Source of the DNA: a virus
Length of the DNA: 64,000 nt
Virus record (IMG/VR): IMGVR_UViG_3300015263_000653
Location: 1 to 64,000 of that record
Reading direction: 5' to 3' (one strand)
Shown here: piece after piece, positions 3,809 through 18,136 of the stretch
Position numbering within the stretch: position 1 is the first letter of the stretch
Layout: every line of letters starts with the position of its first letter
Translations under genes and position numbers: made by a program
Notes under the pieces: generated by a model
The model's input: only the letters and a program-made list of their open reading frames with translations
Database searches by the model: none
Told to the model about the DNA's origin: nothing

Positions 3809-3811
3809 CCC

Positions 3812-3928: not shown

Positions 3929-3977
3929 CACCCGCTTGAACATCGTCAACAACACAACCCTTTCAGGAGATCGCAGA

Positions 3978-4766
3978 ATGAGCTTTATGAAACCCCAACG
4001 CTTCAGCGACCTGTCTCCGACCGACATCTTCTATGACACGCATCGTCATGGATTTGACAACAAGGAGCAAGTCTGGATGAAGGTCACGGGCAATGCCGAT
4101 TTCAACGTCATCAGTGACGACGGCACTCGCACCGGCAAGATGCCCGAAGACAAGATGGTGACGGTCATCCGCAAGAAAATCCACATCCTCGATCTGCGTC
4201 AAGGCGACCAGTGCTGCATGGTGGCACACCTCGGCATCGGCTATATGACCTGCACCGTGCTGAAGATCGAAGACAAAGACGGTTATCGTCACATCACGTT
4301 CATCCGGCCCCTGATTCACGCCAGCGGTTTCGGTACGACCTGTCCCAGCGGATATGTCCACACCGAGAAGTTCACGGCAATGGTTCGCTGCGATGATCGG
4401 AAGCGGGACGATTACTACCATCTGGTCGGCGTCGATACCAGTGCCGTCTATGACGAATACAAGCTGGTTCTCAGCGGTGGTGGCTGTGCCAATCGGCATC
4501 GCATGGCAGTTTACATGCAACTGATGGGCGACAAGCGAAGCATCGCCGAAATCCTCTGCATGGATGGACTCAAGATCAACTCCGAGTGTATCGGCCTGCT
4601 GATGAACAACTTCATCAAGGTGCGGGAGATTCCCCCGGAATACCCGGATCGTGATGACGAAGCCGAAAGCCGGTTCATCAAGGAACTGCAAGCCAAGGCC
4701 GATCACACGAAGTGGGAACGCAAGTACCTCGGCATGGTCGAAGCAAGCCGGGCGAAACTCGTCTGA
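3978..4766 (+). CDS. hypothetical protein, 262 aa
   Basis: The start follows AGGAGATCGCAGA. This is one of the largest proteins of the array, with mixed alpha/beta content and several Cys and His (CCMVAHLGIGYMTC, GGGCANRHR). No recognised catalytic motif or membrane segment. It ends TGA, giving a TGACACCCGCTTG form of the element. Confidence 0.85.
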   Translation: MSFMKPQRFSDLSPTDIFYDTHRHGFDNKEQVWMKVTGNADFNVISDDGTRTGKMPEDKMVTVIRKKIHILDLRQGDQCCMVAHLGIGYMTCTVLKIEDKDGYRHITFIRPLIHASGFGTTCPSGYVHTEKFTAMVRCDDRKRDDYYHLVGVDTSAVYDEYKLVLSGGGCANRHRMAVYMQLMGDKRSIAEILCMDGLKINSECIGLLMNNFIKVREIPPEYPDRDDEAESRFIKELQAKADHTKWERKYLGMVEASRAKLV

Positions 4767-4777
4767 CACCCGCTTGG

Positions 4778-4808
4778 ATACCATCGGGGAACAACTCCCC
4801 GATGGTAT
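4778..4808 (+). other. hairpin after element (CGGGG family)
   Basis: ATACCATCGGGG 4778-4789 pairs perfectly with CCCCGATGGTAT 4797-4808. It is followed by CCAAAATTTGT, a short motif that recurs after hairpins at 13150 and 19846. Confidence 0.9.
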
Positions 4809-4837
4809 TCCAAAATTTGTATTCAGGAGACAACGGA

Positions 4838-5104
4838 ATGACAACCAAAACCGTCGATGAACTCATGCAAGATTTGGAGAGAAGCGAAAGGGATTTGACT
4901 CTCTCCATGATGCGGCGTGCAATCGCCCATGTCAAGCTGATCGACCCAGAACTCTTCTGGGACGTGTATGAAACCGTGGTGCATTTCACGGGCGACTTCC
5001 CCGAAGACGAAGGCTGGGGAACTTCGGATACCAGTGCCGTCCTGCGTGCTGTCTCCGAGCGGATCGACGCCGTAAAAGCCTATCAGCAGCAAACACCCGC
5101 TTGA
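4838..5104 (+). CDS. hypothetical protein, 88 aa
   Basis: The start follows CAGGAGACAACGGA. The protein is helical and acidic. Its final codons run into the element core at 5092 in the Thr-Pro-Ala frame, and it stops at the TGA formed by CTTGA. Here the stop is inside the element rather than at its left edge. Confidence 0.8.
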   Translation: MTTKTVDELMQDLERSERDLTLSMMRRAIAHVKLIDPELFWDVYETVVHFTGDFPEDEGWGTSDTSAVLRAVSERIDAVKAYQQQTPA

Positions 5105-5142
5105 AGCGAAGACAACACAACACCAATCAGGAGATCGCCAAC

Positions 5143-5382
5143 ATGGCACACTTTGCACCGGAACATCAAGAACTGATCGAGAAGCACAACTTGGGAGAAG
5201 GCTCGATCATCGGTGGCCCACTCTACGATCCTCGACGGTTCACCCCCGTTTGCACTCCAGAACTCGAAGCCGATCTGGTCAGGCTCAACATCCCGTTCGA
5301 TAGAACACGAGCCGACAACAAGCAACATCCCGACTACGGCAAGCCGCTGTTCGAGTTTGTCATCTACAAGCAACGTGACTGA
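5143..5382 (+). CDS. hypothetical protein, 79 aa
   Basis: The start follows AGGAGATCGCCAAC. No recognised domain. The sequence is Pro/His-containing (HQELIEKHN, GGPLYDPRRFTPV). It ends TGA, fused to the next element. Confidence 0.8.
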   Translation: MAHFAPEHQELIEKHNLGEGSIIGGPLYDPRRFTPVCTPELEADLVRLNIPFDRTRADNKQHPDYGKPLFEFVIYKQRD

Positions 5383-5425
5383 CACCCGCTTGGTGGGAGT
5401 CAACAACACACACCGGAGATCGCAA

Positions 5426-5791
5426 ATGATGACCGACGAAATCACACAGGAAACGCTCGACAAAGCCGCCGAATTGGGACGGGAAATGGCGAAGCGGGAC
5501 ACTTGGATTCAAGCTGTTCACGATGTGCGAGTGGACAACCCGAACGACTTCGGGGAATACCAGCAAGCCCATCGTGCCGCTTGGGAAGAGACCTGCCAAT
5601 GGGAGCAACTGTGGGGCAGTCGCCTCACAACTCTCACCGAAGAGGCAGCCGAAGCCCAAGACGTGGACAAGTCAACGAACTGGGAAGCGTGGTACTACGG
5701 TTTCTACGATCCCGCCAAAGATGCCATGTGGGATGCGTGGGAAGAGGAACGAGACCTCGCTGCCTACTGGAAACAGAACGTCGCCAAGTAA
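5426..5791 (+). CDS. hypothetical Trp-rich helical protein, 121 aa
   Basis: Tandem ATGATG follows CCGGAGATCGCAA. The sequence is strongly helical with many Trp (AWEETCQWEQLWGS, NWEAWYYGFYDPAKDAMWDAW), as seen in small phage proteins of unknown function. No metal or catalytic motif. Confidence 0.8.
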   Translation: MMTDEITQETLDKAAELGREMAKRDTWIQAVHDVRVDNPNDFGEYQQAHRAAWEETCQWEQLWGSRLTTLTEEAAEAQDVDKSTNWEAWYYGFYDPAKDAMWDAWEEERDLAAYWKQNVAK

Positions 5792-5836
5792 CACCCGCTT
5801 GGTCAGCGTCAACAACATAACCTCATTGGAGTCAAC

Positions 5837-6508
5837 ATGACCATTCAACTTTACGCTCCCGGCGATGGTGCTCTGTCTTTCACGAAGACAGCAAACCAGT
5901 ATGTCGGTAACTGCCGACAAGACGTTGCCACTGGTGAGCCGATCACTCGTGAAGAGGCAGAAGCAAGAGTCGCCGAAGAGGGAGACCGGTTCAAGGATTA
6001 CCTGCTGATCGAGATCGGCAAAGACCAGTCCTACACTCGCATGGTCGAAGCCCCTCGGAAGAAATGGGCAAGGCGAGCCGATCCCCCGGAAATGGTCGAA
6101 GAACTCGTTCTCGTTCCGCCTCAGTTCCGCCTCTGTGCCCCGGTCAAGCGAGTCGGCGATAACAAGCTGCAACTCAATGGCACGGTTTACACCTATGCCG
6201 TGGATGAAAGCAACATTTTCTGGAGTCGGGACGGCGAATACACCGACAACAACCTCTCCATCACGTTCCATCATTGCATCGTGGCGGAAGGCGAAACGCT
6301 GGTCGATGAACCAGACCGAGAACTCCGCAATGTCTCCACCCGTGGCGCACTGCGATGGTTCCTCAACCATGAGGCAATCATTCTCAAGCAGTATCCACAA
6401 CAGGACTCAACGCTGGACGCCACAACTCAGACGTTGAAAGAGACAGTGGCGAGTCTTCGCCGAGCCGGAATGTCCGACGAACAGATCATCGGCCTGACGA
6501 ACGAGTAA
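5837..6508 (+). CDS. hypothetical protein, 223 aa
   Basis: The start follows TTGGAGTCAAC. Mixed alpha/beta, with a C-terminal short helix RRAGMSDEQIIGLTNE that resembles degradation-tag-like or helix-turn segments. No family recognised. The next element (6507) is the short form whose GGAGG itself serves the next start. Confidence 0.8.
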   Translation: MTIQLYAPGDGALSFTKTANQYVGNCRQDVATGEPITREEAEARVAEEGDRFKDYLLIEIGKDQSYTRMVEAPRKKWARRADPPEMVEELVLVPPQFRLCAPVKRVGDNKLQLNGTVYTYAVDESNIFWSRDGEYTDNNLSITFHHCIVAEGETLVDEPDRELRNVSTRGALRWFLNHEAIILKQYPQQDSTLDATTQTLKETVASLRRAGMSDEQIIGLTNE

Positions 6509-6527
6509 CACCCGCTTGGAGGATGTA

Positions 6528-7076
6528 ATGACACCGGACGAACAAATCCAATACCTGCGGGGACTGCAACCCGGAGAGAAGGTGATTGAGACCGAACGAT
6601 CTTCTTGCATGTATGGAAAGACTGGTGTTGTTTACATCAGTGAAAACATCGGCCCCTCTTTTGGCAGCCTTTGTGTCAAGTGGGAAGATGGGATGGGAAC
6701 GTCGGTGACTCACGGGACTCGCAGAATTTCTGACACACAACACACAGGAGATCGCTCAATGTTCAACAAGCCGTTCAAACTGCCTTATATGGGAAGCGAA
6801 TTCGATTGCGTGCTGGTCGAACAGCACTATCGCAATGATCGCCTCGCCATCGAAGTCATCGACCGGGCCGAAGGTGAGCCGTTCACCACCCTCACCGTCA
6901 ACATCCCCGAAGTGCCGCTGGCCGACGACGAGATTCTCGTCAAGACGTGGAGTGAGAACGAGACCATCGCTCCCGCTGTCCTCGCCGCCTTCCCCAATCA
7001 CTTTGAAGATACTGGTCGCACCGTGCCTGCCGGTCATGCCCGTGCCGCCATCTGGAAGATCAAGGGAGCGGCGTAA
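6528..7076 (+). CDS. apparent in-frame fusion of two small genes, 182 aa
   Basis: The start follows CTTGGAGGATGTA. The first 77 codons (beta-rich, GKTGVVYISENIGPS) run without a stop into a second ATG at 6759 that keeps its own leader (ACACACAGGAGATCGCTCA). At the junction a TGA is present but out of frame, and the element core is missing. The second part can therefore be made alone (105 aa) or as a fusion. Loss of the element appears to have merged two genes. Confidence 0.65.
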   Translation: MTPDEQIQYLRGLQPGEKVIETERSSCMYGKTGVVYISENIGPSFGSLCVKWEDGMGTSVTHGTRRISDTQHTGDRSMFNKPFKLPYMGSEFDCVLVEQHYRNDRLAIEVIDRAEGEPFTTLTVNIPEVPLADDEILVKTWSENETIAPAVLAAFPNHFEDTGRTVPAGHARAAIWKIKGAA

Positions 7077-7122
7077 CACCCGCTTGGCTAGAGTACACAC
7101 AACACACTTTCAGGAGATCGCA

Positions 7123-7458
7123 ATGAACAAATCCACGAGCGATATGCTCCACCATCTGTCCAACCTCGAAGTCGATGAATTGGATGCCGCCATCAACCAT
7201 CTGACTCGTGCTCGCAAGAGCCGTGCCGAAATGCGGTCGCTAGTTGCCTTCAAGATCGGCGACAAAGTGACGTTCCCGTGGCACACGAAAGATCAGATGC
7301 ACACCGGAGAATTCGTCGGAACATATCACGAAACCGGCAAGATTTGTGTCGCCAGCGTCATCGACCACGAAGGTAAACCGTATTCTGGAACTTGTGTGGT
7401 CGATGCCCTCAAGGTCGATCACTTGGAAGGCGACGAAGACGAAAAGGAAGCGGCGTAA
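7123..7458 (+). CDS. hypothetical protein with possible SH3-like C-terminus, 111 aa
   Basis: The start follows AGGAGATCGCA. The N-terminus is a helix (LSNLEVDELDAAINHLTRARKSRAEM). It is followed by FKIGDKVTFPWHTKDQ and VGTYHETGKICVASV, the strand pattern of KOW/SH3-like barrels. Acidic end. The function is not known. Confidence 0.8.
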   Translation: MNKSTSDMLHHLSNLEVDELDAAINHLTRARKSRAEMRSLVAFKIGDKVTFPWHTKDQMHTGEFVGTYHETGKICVASVIDHEGKPYSGTCVVDALKVDHLEGDEDEKEAA

Positions 7459-7474
7459 CACCCGCTGGGACAGC

Positions 7475-7840
7475 ATGAACATCGAAACCATCACCAACAT
7501 CGCCAGACGACTCAATCCCGAAACTTTCATCGGGATTGACTATCAACCCGAACAAACTCAAGGAATCAAGTTGGTTGCTTGGTTCAAGTCGGATGAAGGT
7601 CTCCGGGCCTACAAACGACAGTTGATTCGGGGAGAGAACAAAGTTGGCATCGACCTCACAAGTCGCCTGTCAGACAAGCCCGAAACCTTCAACGTCATCG
7701 AGTGGCACAATCCCAGCAACTCGCTTGGAGAAAACCTCACTGCTGAACAGGTGATGGAACTGGGATACAACAATGTCATGTTCGAGCGGGGGAAACAGCG
7801 GGCATGGGTCACAAATTGCTGTGCCTTCAAGTGCCACTAA
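7475..7840 (+). CDS. hypothetical protein, 121 aa
   Basis: The upstream element is the variant CCCGCTGGGACAGC, whose GGGA provides the only ribosome-binding bases. Mixed fold with a Cys-rich end (NCCAFKCH). No family recognised. Confidence 0.75.
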   Translation: MNIETITNIARRLNPETFIGIDYQPEQTQGIKLVAWFKSDEGLRAYKRQLIRGENKVGIDLTSRLSDKPETFNVIEWHNPSNSLGENLTAEQVMELGYNNVMFERGKQRAWVTNCCAFKCH

Positions 7841-7888
7841 CACCCGCTTGTCGGTCATCACAACAACACAACACACAGGAGATCGCAG

Positions 7889-8254
7889 ATGTTTGACCGA
7901 CTGGATATGTCGCCTCGCCGCTTCGCTCGAATGCAAAAGTTGGAATGCGGGGCAAAAGTCCCCAATCCCGACAAGCCGATGGTTCATCCCACTGAGTTTG
8001 GGCCAGACCGGGCGCAGGAGATCGCCGACGCTGCTCATGCCGCCACAACGTGTGGCCCGTGGGTTGACCAGATTGAAGACCAGATGACCGATGGCGAACT
8101 CGTGTTCGTGCTGGTGATTTGGGATCGCCTCAGCGGTAGCTCTTGCTGGATGGATGCGTTCAATCGTATCTGGCGGGGCGAAGTGCAGGCAATGCGAGAC
8201 TCGGAACGCGCCGCACCTGCCGCCTATGCCGCCGCAATGGCGAAACTCGACTAA
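7889..8254 (+). CDS. hypothetical protein, 121 aa
   Basis: The start follows AGGAGATCGCAG. Helical C-terminus rich in Ala (AAPAAYAAAMAKLD). No recognised motif. Full elements on both sides. Confidence 0.8.
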   Translation: MFDRLDMSPRRFARMQKLECGAKVPNPDKPMVHPTEFGPDRAQEIADAAHAATTCGPWVDQIEDQMTDGELVFVLVIWDRLSGSSCWMDAFNRIWRGEVQAMRDSERAAPAAYAAAMAKLD

Positions 8255-8300
8255 CACCCGCTTGGCATCTGTCACAACACAACACACAGGAGATCGAGCC

Positions 8301-8603
8301 ATGTGGGACAAGAATTCAAAGCGTTATCACTTGGGAATCCAAGCATCGGGACACAACCTCTACGAACGTGCCCGATTGTCGGTTTACAACTCATCCAACG
8401 GCAAACTCGAAATTCACGGGTTCGCCATCGGTGGGCAGGACGTGGAAATGATCTACGACCTGTACCTGTCTCGGAGGGATGAACGCAAGCCGACCAAAGA
8501 ACAAATCTCTTTTGTGATTGCCTTCATCTTGGGCATCGCAGAAGGATCGGACCAGCGGACACGGTTGACCGGCAATGGACTGCCGGGACGATACTCCCAC
8601 TAA
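8301..8603 (+). CDS. hypothetical protein, 100 aa
   Basis: The start follows AGGAGATCGAGCC. Beta-rich N-terminal half and a helix near residues 70-85 (TKEQISFVIAFILGIAEG). No family recognised. Confidence 0.8.
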   Translation: MWDKNSKRYHLGIQASGHNLYERARLSVYNSSNGKLEIHGFAIGGQDVEMIYDLYLSRRDERKPTKEQISFVIAFILGIAEGSDQRTRLTGNGLPGRYSH

Positions 8604-8650
8604 CACCCGCTTGGCAAGAGTCAACACAACACACTCTTTCGGAGATCGCC

Positions 8651-9115
8651 ATGACTGGTGACGAATTGAAAAAGCAACTGGCCGAAAAGTATCCGCAGAT
8701 CGGTTTGACCTTCGGATACATCGGCAACCTCGAACGCTGGGGTGATGATCGCTCGTGGTATTTCTTCACGAAGGTCCGTCCGCCGCAAAGTGACAACTGC
8801 CTGTCGTTTGGTAGCTGTCGCACCGATAAGCTGGACGAGTTTATCGCCAAGGCTGAACGAGAACTGGAGAACTGGATTGTCGAGCGGGTACTCCCGCACG
8901 CCGAACACGTCTATCGCAGTTTTGACGTGGTTGTGCCGTTGCATGTCGCTCCCATCGTGGAAAAGACCCTCAAGGCGCATGGAGCAAGTTTCGGTATGCG
9001 TGGTGGTGGTCGCTTCAGTTTCTCGTTGCAACACAAAACCCTCGAAGATATTCGAGAGATCGTTACGGGTCTGGTGGGAACCGAAGGCGTGACGGTCGAG
9101 CCGTCTCGCTGGTAA
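8651..9115 (+). CDS. hypothetical protein, 154 aa
   Basis: The start follows CGGAGATCGCC. Two similar-sized alpha/beta halves (WYFFTKVRPPQ and GRFSFSLQHKTLEDIREIV) could be a duplicated small fold. No catalytic motif. The stop is TAA followed by ACACCC, a one-base shift of the usual stop/element overlap. Confidence 0.8.
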   Translation: MTGDELKKQLAEKYPQIGLTFGYIGNLERWGDDRSWYFFTKVRPPQSDNCLSFGSCRTDKLDEFIAKAERELENWIVERVLPHAEHVYRSFDVVVPLHVAPIVEKTLKAHGASFGMRGGGRFSFSLQHKTLEDIREIVTGLVGTEGVTVEPSRW

Positions 9116-9132
9116 ACACCCGCTTGGAACAT

Positions 9133-9209
9133 GCCCGGCTGACCGGGCCGGTGATCGACGCCAGTACAAAAATTGTACCGGGCTGTGATCCAATGCCAGT
9201 CAGCCGGGC
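9133..9209 (+). ncRNA. structured RNA block between two elements, about 77 nt
   Basis: There is no ORF here. GCCCGGCTGAC 9133-9143 pairs perfectly with GTCAGCCGGGC 9199-9209. Inside, GTACAA/TTGTAC closes an AAA loop. The block sits between cores at 9115 and 9214, where a gene would normally be. Its role is unknown. Confidence 0.6.
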
Positions 9210-9259
9210 CTCTAACACCCGCTTGAAACGAGAACACAACACACTACTAGGAGATCGAG

Positions 9260-9673
9260 ATGACGAAGCCAGAATTCGCCGCCCTGTCAGGATGGGCAAT
9301 CGCTGAACACTTCGGTTGCCAATACTACGGCGATGGTTCGCCAGTCCCGCATGGTGGTGTCTTCTATGACATGCGAGATTGGCAACGATACGGATATGCC
9401 AACGTGGTCAACATCTACAAAGACCCCGAAGGCGAGCCGATTATGACCGTCGAACGTGGCACGCTCAACAAGCCAGAGGACATGCAATCGGCATTCGATT
9501 GTGCTGGTACGCCGAAAGATCAGTACGACAATCCAGCCGCTCAGATCGAAGCCGTCTTCGCCGCCTGTGGTGTCGAACCCGATTCGGTCAACCCGTGGTC
9601 CTACTTCCCCATCGACGACGAAGATCGGTTGTGGGAAGAGACCGAGCAAGACCTGAAATTGCTCGGTAGCTAA
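9260..9673 (+). CDS. hypothetical protein, 137 aa
   Basis: The start follows AGGAGATCGAG. Acidic, aromatic-rich (WAIAEHFGCQYYGDG, NPWSYFPIDDEDRLWEE). No recognised family. Confidence 0.8.
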   Translation: MTKPEFAALSGWAIAEHFGCQYYGDGSPVPHGGVFYDMRDWQRYGYANVVNIYKDPEGEPIMTVERGTLNKPEDMQSAFDCAGTPKDQYDNPAAQIEAVFAACGVEPDSVNPWSYFPIDDEDRLWEETEQDLKLLGS

Positions 9674-9715
9674 CACCCGCTTGATGGGAAACAACACACC
9701 ACTGGAGACCAACAA

Positions 9716-10102
9716 ATGACAAAGCCGTTTGTCCTGTATCGCAACACTAAGAGTCGTGTGGAACACGAACGAGAAGAAGAAGTGATGGATCGCATGGAAG
9801 CCGATGCGGAGATCATCGACTTTGAAGAGTTTGCAGAGAACTGTGAATTCAATGAAGTCGCTGAACAACTCGGCTATGGTGATGACCTGCCGCTGGCCGA
9901 TGATTGGTCTGTCAGCTTCAGCAAGAGCCAGTTCGGCGGATTGCCCTGCTTCATCCTCGGACACACAGAGTGTGATTTCATCTTCCTCAAACCGGAAGAC
10001 GCAAACATGCTCGGCGAACATCATGGTCAAGCCGCCGAAGGGATGACCGACATGGAATGGAAACGTCACACCGGTTACGGCAAGACTGGCCTCGACCCCT
10101 AA
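9716..10102 (+). CDS. hypothetical protein, 128 aa
   Basis: The start follows CTGGAGACCAACAA. The N-terminus is highly charged (SRVEHEREEEVMDRMEADAE) and is followed by a compact mixed region with two Cys. No family recognised. Confidence 0.8.
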   Translation: MTKPFVLYRNTKSRVEHEREEEVMDRMEADAEIIDFEEFAENCEFNEVAEQLGYGDDLPLADDWSVSFSKSQFGGLPCFILGHTECDFIFLKPEDANMLGEHHGQAAEGMTDMEWKRHTGYGKTGLDP

Positions 10103-10120
10103 CACCCGCTTGGAGATCAG

Positions 10121-10429
10121 ATGAACGTCAACATCACGGTAACTTGCCCAAAGCACAACATGATCGTCAATCCCCGGTATGTCACCGAACAACTGGAGAA
10201 ACGAATGTTCCAGATGCCGGGCGGGTTTCGGTTCCGACTGCAACAATGCCTGCCCTATCCGGGCGAGCCGTTTGAGAACAAGACATTGCAGTTCACCAAT
10301 ACTGTGCCGGTTGGCAGGATTCGTGACAACGCCCAGCGAACACCCACTTTCAAAGAGCAGCGAACACGCTTCGCCTTCAACATCGGAGATAACCAAGTCT
10401 CCGTGAGCACTGACCCCGAATCACAATAG
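10121..10429 (+). CDS. hypothetical protein, 102 aa
   Basis: The element at 10101 is the short form: its trailing GGAGATCAG is the Shine-Dalgarno. Beta-rich sequence with two Cys. The next gene follows after 8 nt without an element. Confidence 0.75.
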   Translation: MNVNITVTCPKHNMIVNPRYVTEQLEKRMFQMPGGFRFRLQQCLPYPGEPFENKTLQFTNTVPVGRIRDNAQRTPTFKEQRTRFAFNIGDNQVSVSTDPESQ

Positions 10430-10437
10430 GAGAACGG

Positions 10438-10851
10438 ATGAAACCGAACCCCGGACAACACGTCACTTGCTTGCATGAAATGGCCGCTTACTACTCCAAC
10501 TATGGACCGAACAAAGGCCGACATATCATCTTCCGGCCCGGCATGGTGGGAGTCGTTCACAGCATCACCCCCAAGGTGACACTGCCCAAGCGTGGCACAC
10601 CACTGCCGCCCGGCATCGACCGGAAAGATGAATTCGCCGTGGTCGATTACTTCGACGAGAACAACGAACCGCAACGGGTTGGCTTGAACTTCTGCAACGT
10701 GGTTATCGCTGAACTGCCCCGCAACACTTGCCCCGATTGTGGTGCGCCCAATCGTCCAGACAATGGCGAGCAACTTCATTACGTCAATTGTCCGCATCAC
10801 ACCAAGTGGGTCTTGAAAAGAATTCGACGACGCAAAGCGGCGAAAGCGTAA
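10438..10851 (+). CDS. small zinc-ribbon-like protein, 137 aa
   Basis: The start follows AGGAGAACGG at the end of the previous gene. The C-terminal part has CPDCG, then 14 residues later CPHH, a plausible zinc site, and then a basic tail (KRIRRRKAAKA). It could bind nucleic acid. The partner is unknown. Confidence 0.75.
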   Translation: MKPNPGQHVTCLHEMAAYYSNYGPNKGRHIIFRPGMVGVVHSITPKVTLPKRGTPLPPGIDRKDEFAVVDYFDENNEPQRVGLNFCNVVIAELPRNTCPDCGAPNRPDNGEQLHYVNCPHHTKWVLKRIRRRKAAKA

Positions 10852-10869
10852 CACCCGCTTGTGAAGTGT

Positions 10870-11042
10870 GAGAGAGTGAGCAGGGGGTTGGCCGGTTGTA
10901 TCGGACAATCCTCAAGTCTGCTGAAAGCTCTGCCTGAAGTGCGCACTAGGCTACTTTGGTGAACGTGACCGAAGGAAAAGGTAGATCAGCGGAAGGGATT
11001 GGCATAAACGGGTCGATTCCCGTAACTCCCTGCCCACTCTCT
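10870..11042 (+). ncRNA. tRNA-like structured RNA with an 84-nt insert
   Basis: There is no ORF here. AGAGAGTG 10871-10878 pairs with CACTCTCT 11035-11042, and CAGGG 10881-10885 with CCCTG 11028-11032. Read as a tRNA, GGGGGTT 10883-10889 / AACTCCC 11024-11030 is a 7-bp acceptor with one wobble. A 3-bp D-like arm, CAATCC/GGATTG (10906-10911/10996-11001) as anticodon stem, a 5-nt variable loop and the T arm ACGGG-TCGATT-CCCGT (11008-11023) follow. The T loop is 6 nt instead of 7. The 84-nt insert in the anticodon loop folds itself (CTGCTGA/TCAGCGG, CTTTGGT/ACCGAAG). No CCA is encoded. It is not a normal tRNA. Confidence 0.6.
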
Positions 11043-11092
11043 AACACCCGCTTGTGAAGCGTACAACACAACAACTTTCACTGGAGATCGCA

Positions 11093-11437
11093 ATGAGCCG
11101 TCGAATCACAATCACTTTCGATGTCGTGGATGAAGAGTCAGCCGCCCAAGGCGACTTCGCCGAAACCGGCTGGATTGACGAAGAGGGAGTGGAGATCACC
11201 CCCGATGAGTATGACCTCGACGATGCCGATGGCGATGAGATCGCCGCCGTGGTCGAACTCGCCAAGAAAACCATTCTCCAGAACGGTTGTGTCGAACCAT
11301 CGTCCAGCCAGTTCCATACCGGAGTCTGGTACACGCAAGTTGACTGCCCGATGGGAGAGGAACGCTATTCGTTCCACCTGAACGACTTCCTCCCCGAAGA
11401 GGAAGAGGCAGTTTACAACGCAATCACCGCCAACTAA
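11093..11437 (+). CDS. hypothetical acidic protein, 114 aa
   Basis: The start follows CTGGAGATCGCA. Acidic (YDLDDADGDEIAAVVELA), with a segment EPSSSQFHTGVWYT and YSFHLNDFLPEEEEAVYNAI. This layout recurs in phage hypothetical proteins, but I cannot name a family. Confidence 0.8.
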   Translation: MSRRITITFDVVDEESAAQGDFAETGWIDEEGVEITPDEYDLDDADGDEIAAVVELAKKTILQNGCVEPSSSQFHTGVWYTQVDCPMGEERYSFHLNDFLPEEEEAVYNAITAN

Positions 11438-11455
11438 CACCCACTTGGAGGATAC

Positions 11456-12037
11456 ATGAGCCAACTCGAAACACTGGTGAACCGACTGAACCGCCAACTG
11501 GCAGAAATCAATGCCCTCGTGCGGTTCAAGTACGCCCCTCGCAACAACTATGCCGCCGTCGATGAATTCGACGTGGACGTGGACGGGAATCGGACAAGCA
11601 CCGGCGACCGAAACGTGGCCTGCGGCACTCGCACCGAAGTCACCGACAAAGTGCAGGAACGGTATGAGGAACTGTTTGACACCCGCTTGGGAGAAGTCGA
11701 AGCCCTGCGGGATCGCTTGACCAAGATCAAGGCCAAAGCACGATTGAAATATCTGCGTGGCGAGATCGAAGCCGAACGCATCAGCTACGGCGAGATCGCA
11801 GAACTGCAATCGCTGGTGGAACACATCGACGATGGCGATGTTCTGCTGCTGGAGTGGGCTGGTGTCCCTGAGTTTCCCCCGGATACCGCTCCCTGCCTCG
11901 GTTGCGGTATCACACAAGTCGCTGTCGAAATCCTCGATAACGGTGGCGTGCCGGTCAATCGGTATCGCATCAAGTTGCCCGAATCGTGCGAAGTCAACAT
12001 CGACGAAGAGAACGGCGAAATCATCATCGACAACTAA
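11456..12037 (+). CDS. hypothetical protein with coiled-coil middle, 193 aa, internal element
   Basis: A short-form element supplies GGAGG before the ATG. Residues about 55-120 are a charged coiled coil (LRDRLTKIKAKARLKYLRGE). An element core at 11679 lies in frame within this coil and encodes Asp-Thr-Arg-Leu. The C-terminal part is beta-rich. No family recognised. Confidence 0.8.
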   Translation: MSQLETLVNRLNRQLAEINALVRFKYAPRNNYAAVDEFDVDVDGNRTSTGDRNVACGTRTEVTDKVQERYEELFDTRLGEVEALRDRLTKIKAKARLKYLRGEIEAERISYGEIAELQSLVEHIDDGDVLLLEWAGVPEFPPDTAPCLGCGITQVAVEILDNGGVPVNRYRIKLPESCEVNIDEENGEIIIDN

Positions 12038-12082
12038 CACCCGCTTGAACAGCGTCAACACAACCCATAACAGGAGACCCAC

Positions 12083-12328
12083 ATGACACAGAATGGCCCC
12101 ACAGTGATCGCTGGCGAACAGAATGTCCGCAACGCCCGTGTTCTGGCACTGCGGAGTATGCTCGGCCTCGAAATCAAGGGACTGGGCCGACGTGGGCGAA
12201 GTGCCTACTCCATCGTCAAAGAGGAATTCGGCTTCAAGGGCGGCAAGCAAAAGGTCTATGACCAACTGGACGCCCATATCAAGGCGAATATCCTGCCCGA
12301 TCCGCCCACTGAGGCAACGACCGAGTAA
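12083..12328 (+). CDS. small basic helical protein, 81 aa
   Basis: The start follows AGGAGACCCAC. The sequence has RSMLGLEIKGLGRRGRSAYS then a helix VYDQLDAHIKANIL. It resembles small phage proteins of unknown function found near recombination genes, but the assignment is weak. Confidence 0.75.
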   Translation: MTQNGPTVIAGEQNVRNARVLALRSMLGLEIKGLGRRGRSAYSIVKEEFGFKGGKQKVYDQLDAHIKANILPDPPTEATTE

Positions 12329-12372
12329 CACCCGCTTGGCAACCGTCAACACCAATCAACAGGAGAACAACA

Positions 12373-12696
12373 ATGTCCTTTGGAACGACGGTTGCCGATG
12401 CACTGAGAACCGCTGGATTCAACGTCACCGACGTTTACCAGTACGAATTTCGCTCGGTCGATATTGAGATTGGCGAAGAGTCGCTGACGTTCGGACTGCA
12501 ACACGATGGAACGGTGACGTGGCATGATTTCACTCACACCACTGTCATCGCTCCCATCGACAAGCCGGATGAACTCGTCGCCGCCTTCACCGAACTTCTC
12601 CCGCTAAGGGACGAAGCCCTGCAAGAGTGGATCGCAAGCCGCAAGTGGGAAACGCAAGAGCAACACCCGCTTGGACAACACAACACACCTTACTGA
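12373..12696 (+). CDS. hypothetical protein reading through an element, 107 aa
   Basis: The start follows AGGAGAACAACA. The usual TAA at the element is CAA here (12661-12663). Translation therefore continues through the core (His-Pro-Leu frame) and adds about 11 residues before a TGA in the leader of the next gene. A point change of the stop codon is the simplest explanation. Confidence 0.75.
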   Translation: MSFGTTVADALRTAGFNVTDVYQYEFRSVDIEIGEESLTFGLQHDGTVTWHDFTHTTVIAPIDKPDELVAAFTELLPLRDEALQEWIASRKWETQEQHPLGQHNTPY

Positions 12697-12712
12697 GAAC
12701 AGGAGATCGCTT

Positions 12713-13102
12713 ATGTCAAGTCCGATTCGTCACCGCCTCTGCCGAGACGTTTGTTTCTCTCAAATCGTCGGAGCAATGCGGGATCGCTGCAACGCCCACT
12801 GGCTGGTCGATGCCATCGCTTCTCACCTGCAAGCCGGGAAGGAATTCAAGGCCGCTTGTGAGAAAGATGAACGCTTCCGTGATATGTCCATCTGGATTCT
12901 GCGGAAGACCGGCGACAGCACCGCCGAACTGATCGCCGTCGCTGACACCGACGCCGCATCCATGCGAAGGCCCGCCGTTCGTCAAGAGATTGAGCACACC
13001 GATTTCCCCTTCGACATTGAGGGGCAATACAAGTGCTACGCCTGCTGGACGATGATCGACGACAAGCCCTGCTATTACATCATCGACCCCAAGGAATACT
13101 AG
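12713..13102 (+). CDS. DUF6876-like protein, 129 aa
   Basis: The start follows AGGAGATCGCTT. The pattern NAHWLVDAIASHLQ, then SIWILRKTGDSTAELIAV and IEHTDFPFDIEG, matches the DUF6876 family of phage and mobile-element proteins as I remember it (WLiD...DFPL). The family function is unknown. It ends TAG, so the next element is 3 nt downstream. Confidence 0.6.
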   Translation: MSSPIRHRLCRDVCFSQIVGAMRDRCNAHWLVDAIASHLQAGKEFKAACEKDERFRDMSIWILRKTGDSTAELIAVADTDAASMRRPAVRQEIEHTDFPFDIEGQYKCYACWTMIDDKPCYYIIDPKEY

Positions 13103-13123
13103 GGCAACACCCGCTTGGAAGAC

Positions 13124-13147
13124 ACCGGGGAGAATCGTCTCCCCGGT
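13124..13147 (+). other. hairpin after element (CCGGGGAG family)
   Basis: ACCGGGGAGA 13124-13133 pairs with TCTCCCCGGT 13138-13147 with a 4-nt loop. It is followed by CCAAAAATTGTACTGGAG, which carries the next Shine-Dalgarno. Confidence 0.9.
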
Positions 13148-13177
13148 CATTCCAAAAATTGTACTGGAGAACAACGC

Positions 13178-13429
13178 ATGAAGACGATTTACCTGCTCAT
13201 GTGGGAAGGTCAACTTGGCGGTGGTGGCGGTGGCGGTTTTGAATGGCATCCAGAAAAACAGGTCATGGTCGAAACCCTTGCGAACTTTCTCCGCACCGGC
13301 CCCAAAAAGACCTACTACTGGGAGTTTGAGATCAAAGTCCCGTCCACGGCAACCGAGGATGAAATCAACGAGATCATCGAAAATCGGGCTGAGGAACTCC
13401 AAAACAGCAAGGTCGCCAGCCGGGTTTAA
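13178..13429 (+). CDS. small hypothetical protein, 83 aa
   Basis: The start follows CTGGAGAACAACGC. It has a run of seven Gly near residue 15 (LGGGGGGGFEWHP), then a compact alpha/beta part with VPSTATEDEINEIIENRAEE. No family recognised. Confidence 0.75.
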   Translation: MKTIYLLMWEGQLGGGGGGGFEWHPEKQVMVETLANFLRTGPKKTYYWEFEIKVPSTATEDEINEIIENRAEELQNSKVASRV

Positions 13430-13471
13430 CACCCGCTTGGAAAACAACACAACACCTTTCAGGAGATCGCC

Positions 13472-13693
13472 ATGAACGATTTGCTCGCTGTAATCTTCTC
13501 GCCTGTCGCTCTCAGTGATGAAAAGCTGAGAGAACTGTCGGAGCATGGTATCAAAACCGGCACGGTTGTCGTCGCCGGTTGCGAAGACCGACAATGTTTC
13601 TGGACTCCACCCGGCTCGCCGCCTACCGTCGTCTGGAAGTCGGAAGACGAAGCCCAACAATGGATGGACGAATCGTTGCTCGGAGCGGGGTAA
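13472..13693 (+). CDS. small hypothetical protein, 73 aa
   Basis: The start follows AGGAGATCGCC. Mixed alpha/beta, acidic. No recognised motif. Confidence 0.75.
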   Translation: MNDLLAVIFSPVALSDEKLRELSEHGIKTGTVVVAGCEDRQCFWTPPGSPPTVVWKSEDEAQQWMDESLLGAG

Positions 13694-13741
13694 CACCCGC
13701 TTGAACAACGTACAACACACACAACACTGGAGAACAAAACC

Positions 13742-13969
13742 ATGCTCGTTCGTGACTGGGAAGGGAAAATGGTCGAAGCCCCCGCCGACCTCAAGATTGC
13801 CGTCGCAACCTACTCCGACAATTACATCGTCTGGAGTCGCACCGGCAAGCGTCATCAAGTGCGGTATGGGCTGGAAGTCACCCCCTGCGGCAACGCCAAC
13901 GATGCCGCTCACAAGTTTGGTGAGTGTGTTCAACACTTCGCCGCCTGCGAAGGGAAGCTGGACGACTAA
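13742..13969 (+). CDS. small hypothetical protein, 75 aa
   Basis: The start follows CTGGAGAACAAAACC. Beta-rich first half (KIAVATYSDNYIVWSRTGK) with three Cys later. No recognised family. Confidence 0.75.
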   Translation: MLVRDWEGKMVEAPADLKIAVATYSDNYIVWSRTGKRHQVRYGLEVTPCGNANDAAHKFGECVQHFAACEGKLDD

Positions 13970-14014
13970 CACCCGCTTGTAGAGAAACAACACAACACCT
14001 TTCAGGAGATCGCC

Positions 14015-14368
14015 ATGTACCGCTATCGTGACACCAATTGTTCAACCAAGGGATCGCTTCGGGCCATGAAGCACCTGCTGAAGCTCGGCACAATCACCGC
14101 CATCCGGGGTTACATTTACTTCGGACGTTACAACACGCTCCACGTCGGCGTGATGGTTCACGGTGAGAACGGAACCTGCCGATTCGGCGGTTTCTCATGG
14201 GGTTACGGTGGCGAAGGCCCACGGGGACTCAATGAGTTGTTCGCTCGCCTCAATGTCCCGCAAGCGGAACAAGCCCGGATTCAATCCATCCCGTGGACTG
14301 GCTGGAACGCCGTTCGTGAAGTGTGGCGAATCGACATGACTGCCCTTGAACAACGACAAGCGGCCTAA
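14015..14368 (+). CDS. hypothetical protein, 117 aa
   Basis: The start follows AGGAGATCGCC. Gly/Tyr/Trp-rich centre (GENGTCRFGGFSWGYGGEGP) and a mixed C-terminus. No family recognised. Confidence 0.75.
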   Translation: MYRYRDTNCSTKGSLRAMKHLLKLGTITAIRGYIYFGRYNTLHVGVMVHGENGTCRFGGFSWGYGGEGPRGLNELFARLNVPQAEQARIQSIPWTGWNAVREVWRIDMTALEQRQAA

Positions 14369-14441
14369 CACCCGCTTGAAGGGCATCACCGGCGCACGCC
14401 GCTTCGCACCAAACAACTTCACAACTTACGAAGGGAAACCC

Positions 14442-14699
14442 ATGTACGAAGACCTCAAAGCCATCGCTGATCGGCTCGAAGAACTCAATGAGGACAGTTC
14501 TGAGAACTCGGAATACTGGTCGCTGCAAGAGCGTTTCAAGCCGATGCTCGAAGCCGCTCTGCTGGAACAAAACCTTGTCCAGTTCACCAAGCCGCAACTA
14601 TTCGACCTGATGTGCTGGATCGGCACTCACCGGCCCGTCCCCCTGCACACCGTTTTCTCGTCGTTCAGCCTTGCTCGAAAGTACGGACTGCCCGAATAA
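14442..14699 (+). CDS. hypothetical helical protein, 85 aa
   Basis: AAGGG lies before the ATG. The junction here lacks the A/C-rich leader and has a GC-rich spacer (ACCGGCGCACGCCGC) instead. Acidic helical sequence. The longer in-frame version from 14346 would cross the element and is unlikely. Confidence 0.7.
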   Translation: MYEDLKAIADRLEELNEDSSENSEYWSLQERFKPMLEAALLEQNLVQFTKPQLFDLMCWIGTHRPVPLHTVFSSFSLARKYGLPE

Positions 14700-14750
14700 C
14701 ACCCGCTTGTAGGGCATCGAGAGTAAACACAACACCATCTTGGAGAACCC

Positions 14751-15029
14751 ATGACCGACCCCACCATTCGCCGTTACATGCTGGTCTCTGACTATTCCAA
14801 CAATCAGACCGATCTGGAATGGCAAAGACTTTTGGAACGGATCGCTGTGACCGAACCGACATTGCTGCTGCAAGCTGTCGTGACAAAACACGGCTTGCGT
14901 GGCACAATGAACGAATTGGCCGATGCCGTCGAAGGGATGGAAAGCGTCCCCTATCTGCCAGTCGGGGAGAAAATCCACCCGGCAGACGTGAAGACTGCCC
15001 TCAACAACATTCGGGCTGACTTGTTCTAA
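14751..15029 (+). CDS. hypothetical protein, 92 aa
   Basis: The start follows TTGGAGAACCC. Helical, neutral, Leu-rich (LLQAVVTKHGLRGTMNELAD). No recognised family. Confidence 0.75.
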   Translation: MTDPTIRRYMLVSDYSNNQTDLEWQRLLERIAVTEPTLLLQAVVTKHGLRGTMNELADAVEGMESVPYLPVGEKIHPADVKTALNNIRADLF

Positions 15030-15082
15030 CACCCGCTTGGACTGCGGTAACACACAACACAACTTTTGGATTGGAGATCGAC

Positions 15083-15376
15083 ATGAAACCCGGAGAAGGC
15101 GCAGCACACCTGCGAAAACTGCGAAAGCACTCGCCACTGCGAACCGACGTGACATTCCCCGAAGAGGAACACGTTGCCCACGCCGTGGCAAAGGCTCTCG
15201 ATGATCTGTGGTCCTGTAACGGCATCCACCCCGCTCGAATCGCTGGGCTGGCTCTCGAAGAGGCAAACAGCCATCAAGCCGCCGCCGTTTGCTTCGCTCT
15301 GGCCGAAGGCGATTTGTCGGTGGAAAAGTTGCGGGAGATCCTCGCCATCCGCAATCACATCGAAGTCACCGGCTAA
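15083..15376 (+). CDS. hypothetical helical protein, 97 aa
   Basis: The start follows TTGGAGATCGAC. Helical with two His-containing segments (EEEHVAHAVAKALDDLW, ALEEANSHQAAAVCFAL). No metal motif is convincing. Confidence 0.75.
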   Translation: MKPGEGAAHLRKLRKHSPLRTDVTFPEEEHVAHAVAKALDDLWSCNGIHPARIAGLALEEANSHQAAAVCFALAEGDLSVEKLREILAIRNHIEVTG

Positions 15377-15399
15377 CACCCGCTTGGAAAGGACAAGAC

Positions 15400-15510
15400 A
15401 TGATCGTTGACAGAAAACAGAAGCGTCTGATTCGACGCATCAACTGGAAACTGATGCCTTGGCAAAGGAAACGACGGTTCACAATCCTCGGCTGGCAAGT
15501 CTGGCTGTAA
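15400..15510 (+). CDS. tiny very basic protein, 36 aa
   Basis: A short-form element with GGAAAGGACAAG before the ATG. The sequence is rich in Arg/Lys and Trp (RKQKRLIRRINWKL, RKRRFTILGW), so it might bind nucleic acid. An element bounds each side, which supports it as a real gene despite its size. Confidence 0.6.
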   Translation: MIVDRKQKRLIRRINWKLMPWQRKRRFTILGWQVWL

Positions 15511-15556
15511 CACCCGCTTGAACCCAGTCAACACAACACTCACAGGAGATCAGAAC

Positions 15557-15898
15557 ATGAACATGATTCAGCGTGCCGCTCTGTCGCCCGTCCCCGGAAA
15601 CCACAAGGTGATCGCTGGTGGACCCATCACCCTCCAGCCGCATTCTCGTGCCTATCGGGTTGTTATCGCCAACTGGGGTGACAAGCTCTCGGTTCATCAG
15701 GAAATTTTCGACGTGGACAAGGCCGACAACGCCGACGACCTCGCCGAAGCGTGCCGCAACGCCGAAAGCTGGCTCGATCAGGGCAGTTACTTCGGATACG
15801 ACGAACTTCACAAGGCCCAAAGCGAATTCGCCAACCGGCTGACGAAGCACGCCTATCACGTTGAAAGCATCTACCGGGATGTTCAGGCTGCCGCCTAA
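15557..15898 (+). CDS. hypothetical protein, 113 aa
   Basis: The start follows AGGAGATCAGAAC. Mixed alpha/beta. Begins MNMIQRAALSPVPGNHKVI and ends with a helix. No recognised family. Confidence 0.75.
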   Translation: MNMIQRAALSPVPGNHKVIAGGPITLQPHSRAYRVVIANWGDKLSVHQEIFDVDKADNADDLAEACRNAESWLDQGSYFGYDELHKAQSEFANRLTKHAYHVESIYRDVQAAA

Positions 15899-15920
15899 CA
15901 CCCACTTGGACACCATGAGA

Positions 15921-15939
15921 GGGTGACAACGAGTCACCC
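15921..15939 (+). other. short hairpin after element
   Basis: GGGTGAC 15921-15927 pairs with GTCACCC 15933-15939. It lies between the element at 15897 and the next ribosome site (GAGGAGACTGCCCT). There is no T-tract. Confidence 0.75.
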
Positions 15940-15970
15940 CAAACAACCCTAGTTTTGAGGAGACTGCCCT

Positions 15971-16345
15971 ATGACCATGCGAAACCCCCGTGGCAAGACG
16001 TTGAACCGTGCAATGCGGGATGCGGAAGCGAACTTCCGCTATCTCCAGAAGTTGACGGTCAACACTTCGCCGACCCTGAATCGGCTCGGCTCTGTCGCCG
16101 TGGCAACCATCCCAAAGGCTCCGAAAGATGGCTCGAACAAGCTGACTCTCAGCGTTCGTGGCATCGCCGAAGAGTCCGCCCGGATCGCCAAGGTGCTCAA
16201 AAACGGTGTCACCGCCGACCAGATTGCCGCTGGTGCGACCGTTCCCGTCAAGTTCAGCCGCATCGACGTGATGGTGACGTTCAAGATCGACGCCGCCGCC
16301 GTCAATGCCGCTCAGGAACGTGTCAAGCGTCGGATCGCTGCCTGA
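15971..16345 (+). CDS. hypothetical protein, 124 aa
   Basis: The start follows GAGGAGACTGCCCT. Basic helical N-terminus (RGKTLNRAMRDAEANFRYL) and a beta/helix C-terminus (FKIDAAAVNAAQERVKRRIAA). Basic overall, so nucleic-acid binding is possible but unproven. Here the stop TGA is 2 nt before the element. Confidence 0.75.
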   Translation: MTMRNPRGKTLNRAMRDAEANFRYLQKLTVNTSPTLNRLGSVAVATIPKAPKDGSNKLTLSVRGIAEESARIAKVLKNGVTADQIAAGATVPVKFSRIDVMVTFKIDAAAVNAAQERVKRRIAA

Positions 16346-16358
16346 GTGACACCCGCTT

Positions 16359-16398
16359 GGGAAGCGTGAGGCAAACGCCGCCCTGCCTCACGCTTCCC
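16359..16398 (+). other. perfect 15-bp hairpin bracketed by two elements
   Basis: Positions 16359-16373 (GGGAAGCGTGAGGCA) and 16384-16398 are exact reverse complements. Cores at 16348 and 16412 flank the hairpin, with no ORF between them. Confidence 0.9.
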
Positions 16399-16463
16399 AA
16401 CTCTTTCATCTAACACCCGCTTGGGAAGCGTACAACACACAACACCTTTTACTGGAGATCGCA

Positions 16464-17069
16464 ATGATGACCACGACCATGACCCCAAAGGATGCTTGGC
16501 TGTACGCTGCAAGCTGGGGATCGCTGATCCGAAGCGGAGACCCCGGCGCATGTATGTACGGATTCAATGAGTCCTGCCGCCCTCAGTCTGAGGAACACCG
16601 GCAAGCGGTTCTCGAATACGTCAAGGGTTGCCGTGCCGCTGTGGAAGCAAGCCCGGAAGACTACGATGATGATGAACTGGAAAAGATGGATGCGTTCGTC
16701 GAATTCATCACCAATCGGGGCATCACCGGTCAAGAGCGTGAACCATTCATCATCGAAATCAGCCTTTGCGGCTCGGTGAGCGTTTGCAAGATGGATGGCA
16801 GTGAGATCGACGGCGATTTGCTCAACGATCTGGCCGACTGCAATGCCAGCGGAGATTGCGAACCCGCTTGTCGATACGTTCTCGACCAGTACAAGCCCGA
16901 ATTTCGCATCGTTCGCAAGGTCGGTGACAAGTATGAAAACGTGATCGCCTCGGCAAAGGAAAAGAAAGCCGTCTGCAAAACGATCTATTTCGACTCCGAA
17001 ACCGACTTCGACGATGAGGACAACTGCAACGTCTACCTGATGTGGGAAGCCGCTCACGACGAAGAGTAA
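16464..17069 (+). CDS. hypothetical protein, 201 aa
   Basis: Tandem ATGATG follows CTGGAGATCGCA. Acidic, with nine Cys spread through the sequence. It has internal SVCKMDGSEIDGDLLNDLADC and ends in an acidic tail. No family recognised. A partial core-like stretch (AACCCGCTTG, 16861) lacks the CAC and is probably chance. Confidence 0.8.
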   Translation: MMTTTMTPKDAWLYAASWGSLIRSGDPGACMYGFNESCRPQSEEHRQAVLEYVKGCRAAVEASPEDYDDDELEKMDAFVEFITNRGITGQEREPFIIEISLCGSVSVCKMDGSEIDGDLLNDLADCNASGDCEPACRYVLDQYKPEFRIVRKVGDKYENVIASAKEKKAVCKTIYFDSETDFDDEDNCNVYLMWEAAHDEE

Positions 17070-17177
17070 CACCCGCTTGGACACCATCTGAGAAACATGC
17101 AATACCTCGAAGGCTCCGAATGGAAAGGAGGTGGCCCATGAAGTTCTGAACCCCGATCTGAATTGAACATGAGGTAC

Positions 17178-17201
17178 GCCGGGGGAGGCAACTCCCCCGG
17201 C
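17178..17201 (+). other. hairpin before element (CCGGGGGAG family)
   Basis: GCCGGGGGAG 17178-17187 pairs with CTCCCCCGGC 17192-17201 around a 4-nt loop. It lies in a 165-nt gene-free gap (17070-17234) that also holds GGAAAGGAGGTGGCCC before a three-codon ORF. Otherwise I see nothing in this gap. Confidence 0.85.
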
Positions 17202-17234
17202 TACGCCTAACACCCGCTTGAAGGAAAACAACAC

Positions 17235-17426
17235 ATGAACCCATCGACTCACAACGGATTCATTCTGGCCTATTCCGGCCCCGTGTTTCCGGCATCAACC
17301 GCCAACCAAATCACCTACGATTGCTTTTGCTTCATGGGCGGATTGGCGAACGGACGATTGCAAAAGATCGAAAAACGAAACGGCAGCCACGTTTACCACA
17401 CCTACCATCGGTGCGACACTGCCTAA
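17235..17426 (+). CDS. small hypothetical protein, 63 aa
   Basis: A short-form element with GAAGGAAAACAACAC before the ATG. Neutral, Gly/Asn-rich (NGFILAYSGPVFPAST) with CFCFMGG in the middle. No recognised family. Confidence 0.65.
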   Translation: MNPSTHNGFILAYSGPVFPASTANQITYDCFCFMGGLANGRLQKIEKRNGSHVYHTYHRCDTA

Positions 17427-17448
17427 CACCCGCTTGAAGGAAAACGAC

Positions 17449-17685
17449 ATGATTCGTGACAGATTGAAACGAAAACACCTTGCGGATCGCAAACCGTTGC
17501 ATGAAATGCACGCTGGCCCCGGCTGGCTGTGGGATCGCAACGAAGTGGGAGAGGCACGCAAACGGGTCGCTGCAAAGCACTATATCCGTCGCCACTCAAC
17601 CATGAATGTGATCGACGTGAGAGACCTGCCCACGCCGGTATTGGTTGTGATCGCAAAATCTGTCAAACAACTGACTGGCCGCTAA
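17449..17685 (+). CDS. small basic hypothetical protein, 78 aa
   Basis: A short-form element with GAAGGAAAACGAC before the ATG. Basic N-terminus (RDRLKRKHLADRKPLHEM) and a hydrophobic C-terminal strand (TPVLVVIAKSV). No recognised family. Confidence 0.7.
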   Translation: MIRDRLKRKHLADRKPLHEMHAGPGWLWDRNEVGEARKRVAAKHYIRRHSTMNVIDVRDLPTPVLVVIAKSVKQLTGR

Positions 17686-17731
17686 CACCCGCTTGTTCGT
17701 CGTCAACACAACCCTTTCACTGGAGAACACT

Positions 17732-18091
17732 ATGCAACACCGCATCATCGAAGGCGACGAAAACAAGGTCGGCAAGCTGGTTATCACCATCGACGCCGAT
17801 GAACAAGCCGAACTGAGAGAGTTGATCGAACCGCTTGTCTGTAACTCCGAATTGCAGTGGATCAACCCGGAAGATACCGGCGACCTCACCGACGCCCCCA
17901 TGCTGGGCATCCTCGGCGAAGAGTCCACCGAAAACACCGGCCCCTTCGGGGCAATCCAGTGCGGTTTCTGGGATGGCAAACCCCGCTTTCAACCGATTCT
18001 CAACCGCTGGGCATTCATGGAATCGGCCCTGCGAAGCCCCCTCGAAGACCTGCTCGAAAAGGGCGAAGTGGTTTTCGTGGATCGCAACTAA
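17732..18091 (+). CDS. conserved phage-type hypothetical protein, 119 aa
   Basis: The start follows CTGGAGAACACT. The layout ADEQAELRELIEP, then GDLTDAPMLGILGE, then RWAFMESALRSPLEDLLEKG with VVFVDRN at the end, resembles a hypothetical protein I recall from many phage and mobile-element genomes. The function is unknown. There are no catalytic residues I can name. Confidence 0.75.
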   Translation: MQHRIIEGDENKVGKLVITIDADEQAELRELIEPLVCNSELQWINPEDTGDLTDAPMLGILGEESTENTGPFGAIQCGFWDGKPRFQPILNRWAFMESALRSPLEDLLEKGEVVFVDRN

Positions 18092-18136
18092 CACCCGCTT
18101 GGCAAGAGTCAACACAACCCAACCAATGGAGAACCA

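What the first reader, a model, noticed from the sequence alone, without database searches (positions are those of the whole stretch)
10870..11042. tRNA-like RNA with an 84-nt domain in place of the anticodon loop
Acceptor-like 7-bp stem, T arm with the TCGAT core, 5-nt variable loop and anticodon-stem-like helix lie at correct spacing. The T loop is one base short and no CCA is encoded. The insert folds on its own. It may be a tRNA mimic, a decayed tRNA with an inserted cassette, or a regulatory RNA using tRNA shape.
Basis: partly seen in the sequence, partly recalled or inferred. Interest (0 to 1): 0.75.

Follow-up and report, generated by a model that had tools for sequence, protein, structure and literature searches.

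The report
Orphan tRNA-shaped RNA in a phage
A bacterial virus carries, between two small genes, a stretch of about 170 bases that would fold as RNA into a tRNA-like cloverleaf with an overlong stem and a long extra arm where the anticodon should be; it matches no catalogued RNA family and is probably a tRNA mimic or an RNA-processing element rather than a working tRNA.

Summary
Bases 10872-11041 (+) fold into a four-way junction with the tRNA arm order and near-tRNA linkers (2, 1, 6, 0 nt): a 17-bp basal stem (10 + 7 bp around one A.C), a D-arm-like hairpin, a 96-nt arm at the anticodon position, and a T arm with a 6-nt TCGATT loop. Folding is far below shuffles (z about -5.5 to -6). The cloverleaf plus T-core occurs once in 64 kb, in 9 of 400 window shuffles, and in 0 of 100,000 shuffles of the unit itself. 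The RNA is a discrete noncoding unit between two copies of a motif (TAACACCCGCTTG, 98 copies) that punctuates a roughly 32-kb one-strand array of small genes in a T4-like phage. Other noncoding units there are structured; one hairpin series shows compensatory changes. It is not a usable tRNA, fails the tested tmRNA criteria, and differs in arm order from YrlA Y RNAs. No Rfam match and no relative was found, so conservation is untested and function inferred. Most likely: a co-transcribed RNA, trimmed at its long stem, whose T-arm/acceptor stack engages a tRNA-handling factor (mimic), or simply a processing/stability element of the long transcript.

The parts
10849..10861 (+). array motif TAACACCCGCTTG that bounds the unit upstream; its TAA is the stop codon of the preceding gene (10438-10851)
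10872..10889 (+). 5' strand of the basal (acceptor-like) stem, 7 + 10 bp around A10879.C11034
   Evidence: pair probabilities mostly above 0.97; 0.86 for the innermost pair
10892..10904 (+). D-arm-like hairpin CCGGTTGTATCGG after a 2-nt linker (GG)
10906..11001 (+). 96-nt arm at the anticodon position: base helix 10906-10912/10995-11001, then 10917-10924/10986-10993, 10929-10935/10979-10985 and an apical hairpin 10954-10974
11002..11007 (+). 6-nt variable-loop-like segment GCATAA
11008..11023 (+). T-arm-like hairpin ACGGG-TCGATT-CCCGT, loop of 6 instead of 7
11024..11041 (+). 3' strand of the basal stem, directly adjoining the T arm
11042..11054 (+). next copy of the array motif, directly after the stem; no CCA encoded
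741..32477 (+). one-strand array of small genes and noncoding RNA units, 98 motif copies, in which the RNA is one unit

Best explanation
Bases about 10865-11045 encode a structured noncoding RNA of a T4-like phage, one unit of a long motif-punctuated, one-strand array. It is co-transcribed with the array and probably trimmed out of the transcript by a double-strand or tRNA-type nuclease acting on the T-stem plus basal-stem stack of about 23 bp (RNase III and/or RNase P; inferred). The released RNA has tRNA shape in two dimensions. Its T-arm/acceptor stack is likely what a tRNA-handling protein recognises (inferred), while the arm at the anticodon position is the effector or payload (inferred). 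It cannot be expected to be aminoacylated or to decode in the ordinary way, so it would act as a mimic or competitor rather than as an adaptor. Shown: the sequence, the predicted fold and its excess over chance, the unit boundaries, the absence from known families. Not shown: transcription, processing, partner, effect.
For: Fold z -5.5 to -6. tRNA arm order with linkers 2/1/6/0 and a TCGA T-core, unique in the window and 0 of 100,000 unit shuffles. Only the + strand, the coding strand of the array, gives this cloverleaf; the - strand fold is weaker against its shuffles (z -2.2). The unit lies exactly between two motif copies and contains no ORF over 33 codons. Other noncoding units of the same array are strongly structured, and one hairpin series shows compensatory changes in 4 of 15 pairs, so RNA (or hairpin DNA) structure appears to be under selection in this array. 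RNase III involvement in T4 tRNA maturation is described in a review (PMC4810235), and RNase P cleavage of phage RNAs such as M3 and C4 in another (PMC11143913).
Against: No relative of the RNA was found in the searched collections, so no covariation supports its own pairs. Core tRNA identity outside the T arm is poor (no U8, no G18G19, 6-nt T loop), so a tRNA-like three-dimensional fold is not assured. The phage record encodes no TROVE protein and no obvious dedicated partner next to the RNA: the flanking proteins match no Pfam family. No second cloverleaf of this kind was found among the other noncoding units, which suggests that a shared function of these units may not need tRNA shape.
Confidence: 0.42

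Rival explanations
1. cis-acting processing, stability or insulation element of the long array transcript: a cleavage site for RNase III (or RNase P), comparable in role to the simpler hairpins at other gene junctions, with tRNA resemblance of little importance.
For: It sits between two genes in a one-strand array, and several other junctions hold long hairpins (16355-16402, 23879, 24216, 24689, 26403, 31155). The T stem plus basal stem would stack to about 23 bp, within the size range of RNase III substrates (own knowledge).
Against: A simple hairpin would do; it does not explain the tRNA arm order, the T-core and a 96-nt arm.
Confidence: 0.3
2. Descendant of a phage tRNA gene that lost function and gained an insert in the anticodon loop (or kept an intron). 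With relaxed thresholds ARAGORN reads tRNA-Leu(CAA) with a 79-nt intron.
For: The T arm is one base short of an ordinary tRNA T arm. ARAGORN at 50% threshold calls [10882,11034] (caa) i(33,79). Loop bases C-U-C-A-A-G-G would be a regular anticodon loop with U33 and a purine at 37.
Against: The relaxed setting yields 502 calls in this window, so the call carries no weight on its own. tRNA-Leu should have a long variable arm; this has 6 nt. Decay does not add a well-paired extension of the acceptor stem. No bulge-helix-bulge is evident and the insert is far too small for a group I intron (own knowledge).
Confidence: 0.13
3. A Y RNA (YrlA type) that tethers a Ro60/Rsr protein to PNPase by a tRNA-like domain.
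For: Long 5'/3' stem plus tRNA-like domain, the general plan described for YrlA (PMC8394870).
Against: No TROVE family match in either phage record (a control genome rang). The review describes a YrlA tRNA-like domain with D, T and acceptor arms in addition to the basal stem; here the basal stem itself is the acceptor-like stem joined to the T arm without linker, so the topology differs. No Rfam match at E up to 10.
Confidence: 0.05
4. Chance fold: a structured RNA whose tRNA resemblance is coincidental.
For: The search for resemblance was made after the fact; 9 of 400 shuffled windows contain some match to the descriptor.
Against: 0 of 100,000 unit shuffles; only about 15 noncoding units exist in the array; the T arm matches a common tRNA T-arm sequence but for one base (own knowledge).
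Confidence: 0.1

Closest known systems
tmRNA (10Sa RNA)
   Same: Acceptor stem and T arm of a tRNA with a long arm and inserted domain at the anticodon position; unpermuted order (own knowledge)
   Different: About half the size, no encoded CCA, D-like arm has a stem, no tag reading frame recognised, no ARAGORN or Rfam match
YrlA bacterial Y RNA
   Same: Long stem formed by the 5' and 3' ends plus a tRNA-like domain
   Different: Different placement of the basal stem, no Ro60/TROVE gene in the phage record, no Rfam match
Phage-encoded tRNAs of T4-like phages
   Same: T4 pre-tRNAs Pro and Ser also lack encoded CCA (Ser carries UAA instead), and T4 tRNA maturation involves RNase P and RNase III (PMC11143913, PMC4810235)
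   Different: 17-bp acceptor stem, 6-nt T loop, 96-nt arm instead of a 17-nt anticodon arm
RNase P substrates that are not tRNAs (phage M3 RNA, P1/P7 C4 antisense RNA, polycistronic mRNAs)
   Same: Phage and operon RNAs that RNase P cleaves although they are not tRNAs (PMC11143913)
   Different: Whether RNase P acts here is untested; this RNA has a fuller cloverleaf (own knowledge of the others)

Membership tests
functional tRNA | cloverleaf with 7-bp acceptor, D, anticodon and T arms at tRNA linkers | tested here: inconclusive
   arm order present, linkers 2/1/6/0 with a variable segment one longer than usual, but 17-bp acceptor stem and 96-nt anticodon-position arm
functional tRNA | 7-nt T loop T-psi-C-R-A and G18G19 in the D loop | tested here: not met
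   T loop is TCGATT (6 nt); D-like loop GTTGTAT or TTGTA without GG
functional tRNA | recognised by a tRNA gene finder, introns allowed | tested here: not met
   ARAGORN 0 genes, also with intron options; a call appears only at 50% threshold among 502
functional tRNA | 3' CCA, encoded or added | tested here: inconclusive
   not encoded; a nucleotidyltransferase-like gene lies at 62692-63939 but its DxD motif reads NxE
tmRNA | tmRNA covariance model or ARAGORN tmRNA match | tested here: not met
   none
tmRNA | tag reading frame with resume codon | not tested
   no candidate seen by eye; not analysed systematically
YrlA / Y RNA | Ro60/Rsr (TROVE) partner gene nearby | tested here: not met
   PF05731 absent from G000 and G001, both possibly fragments; one control genome rang
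YrlA / Y RNA | tRNA-like domain with D, T and acceptor arms in addition to a basal stem | tested here: not met
   here the basal stem adjoins the T arm without linker, as an acceptor stem does
RNase III / RNase P processing element | in vivo cleavage at the stem | not testable with these tools
   needs RNA from infected cells or purified enzyme

The most novel reading that the evidence does not exclude
A new class of phage noncoding RNA: an unpermuted tRNA mimic in which the anticodon arm is replaced by an effector arm and the acceptor stem is extended into a processing stalk, carried as a cassette in a motif-punctuated array together with a dozen or so other structured RNAs, and used to occupy a tRNA-handling protein of the host such as an anticodon nuclease, RNase P or an exonuclease complex.
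Probability: 0.25. Interest if true: 0.75.

Novelty: new variant of a known kind. Interest (0 to 1): 0.5.

Why it matters
tRNA-shaped noncoding RNAs are few (tmRNA, YrlA, viral 3' tRNA-like structures). A phage-borne one outside these families would give a concrete handle on how phages engage tRNA-handling enzymes, some of which (anticodon nucleases such as PrrC) are anti-phage defences. It also points to an array with many structured RNA units whose role can be tested together.

Tried and rejected
Rfam at gathering and at E up to 10: nothing credible. ARAGORN with introns and in tmRNA mode: nothing. Homologues by blastn in phages, exact patterns in viral contigs, a covariance model built on this one sequence over fetched loci and related records: no relative; the weak scores are short or G+C-rich matches, several at the very sites picked for the T-arm pattern, and are treated as chance. 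The only other record found with the array (G001, 80,764 bp, nearly identical) begins at about window position 25,879 and does not reach the RNA. Upstream neighbour protein: no relatives. Array motif with context in genome contigs: none; a phage epimerase as a lead to the host: none, so the host is unknown. Integron attC sites were considered for the repeated motif because the stop codon overlaps TAAC, but no copy of the motif lies on the minus strand, so the inverted half of an attC is missing. A hammerhead-like CUGAUGA in the 30454-30672 unit lacks the GAAA partner and was dropped. A sliding-window fold scan missed the locus because its step did not fit the 171-nt stem; one search folded it directly. 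An edited copy of the RNA (insert removed) for a tRNA test was deliberately not made; descriptor scans on the real sequence were used instead.

Full report
What is there. The window is the first 64 kb of an 89,856-bp IMG/VR virus record. A structural protein matches PHROG virion proteins and is about 36-41% identical to proteins of cyanomyoviruses and of Puniceispirillum phage HMO-2011, and the record has a gp25-type baseplate protein and a Clp-type head protease, so this is taken to be a T4-like phage or a fragment of one. Between about 741 and 32,477 the + strand carries 98 copies of TAACACCCGCTTG with at most one mismatch (0.05 expected), nearly all at gene junctions and usually overlapping the stop codon of the preceding gene; none of the core motif lies on the minus strand. 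A hairpin followed by a T run at about 32,545-32,569 lies just after the last copy.

The finding's RNA is one unit of this array, exactly between the motif copies at 10849 and 11042, with no ORF over 33 codons. It folds with z -5.5 to -6 against dinucleotide shuffles and lies in the lowest 0.2% of 174-nt windows of the same genome. The minus strand folds less well against its own shuffles (z -2.2).

Anatomy: basal stem 10872-10878/11035-11041 and 10880-10889/11024-11033; linker GG; D-like hairpin 10892-10904; linker A10905; arm 10906-11001 with three successive helices and an apical hairpin; segment GCATAA; T-like arm 11008-11023 with loop TCGATT; no linker to the acceptor strand. The order of arms is that of tRNA and the linkers are close to it (variable segment one longer than usual). 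The T arm ACGGG-TCGATT-CCCGT is a common tRNA T arm with one T missing (own knowledge). Against this, U8, G18G19 and a 7-nt T loop are missing, so the tertiary elbow of tRNA is not assured.

Chance. A descriptor for tRNA linkers, 7-bp acceptor, T-core and an anticodon arm of any length up to about 160 nt gives one place in the window on both strands, 0.0225 per shuffled window (9 of 400), and 0 in 100,000 shuffles of the unit (159 without the T-core). The descriptor was written after seeing the fold, so these figures are optimistic, but with about 15 noncoding units in the array a coincidence is unlikely.

Relatives. None were found by Rfam, blastn, exact patterns or a single-sequence covariance model. 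The one near-identical phage contig starts downstream of the RNA. Covariation for this RNA is therefore untested. Indirect support comes from the same array: five noncoding units carry a 15-bp hairpin with 4 pairs changed on both sides and 98.7% of cells paired, and a 219-nt stretch (30454-30672) folds with z -5.3.

Mechanism. I consider most likely that the unit is transcribed with the array and released or cut at its long stem, and that its tRNA shape serves to engage a tRNA-handling factor, with the arm at the anticodon position as effector. The processing and binding steps are inference. The main rival is a cis-acting processing or stability element with no trans role. Decayed tRNA, Y RNA and chance are less likely for the reasons given in the rivals.

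Comparison. Tests for tRNA, tmRNA and YrlA were each failed on at least one tested feature, so the RNA is not filed under any of them; it may still work like a tRNA mimic. tmRNA is the closest in topology (own knowledge), YrlA the closest in general plan (PMC8394870).

Verdict. Observation confirmed, interpretation partly supported, function open. Interest 0.5: an orphan structured phage RNA with genuine tRNA-like architecture, limited by the lack of relatives and of expression data.

Noticed in passing
window 741-32477 (+): 98 copies of TAACACCCGCTTG (0.05 expected) at nearly every gene junction of a one-strand array of small proteins, 73 of which were scanned and show almost no family matches; usually the TAA is the stop codon. 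Role unknown (promoter, processing or translation signal, or cassette boundary).
   Followed up: partly
window 23889-23927, 24226-24266, 24699-24739, 26413-26453, 31177-31217: Five noncoding units carry a 15-bp hairpin with constant core (AGTAACTC/GAGTTACT or its flipped form) and compensatory changes in 4 pairs.
   Followed up: partly
window 59481-60480 (+): About 1 kb of gene-poor sequence folds with z -8.4 (20 shuffles) and ends in a GC-rich hairpin plus T run: a candidate giant structured phage RNA resembling GOLLD/ROOL in size, with no credible Rfam match and no blastn match in phages.
   Followed up: partly
window 30454-30672 (+): Another noncoding array unit, 219 nt, z -5.3, without a known family.
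   Followed up: partly
window 62692-63939 (-): tRNA nucleotidyltransferase / poly(A) polymerase-like protein (PF01743) whose catalytic DxD aligns as N-I-E, so it may be inactive or altered; no tRNA gene was found in the record.
   Followed up: partly
window 27276-27353 and 28929-28997 against L013: The near-identical phage contig G001 lacks 78 and 69 bases here (plus an 18-base gap), all multiples of three, inside array ORFs.
   Followed up: no
window 9116-9214, 16349-16412, 18978-19093, 25658-25753, 31857-31957 (+): Further short noncoding array units with stable stems.
   Followed up: no
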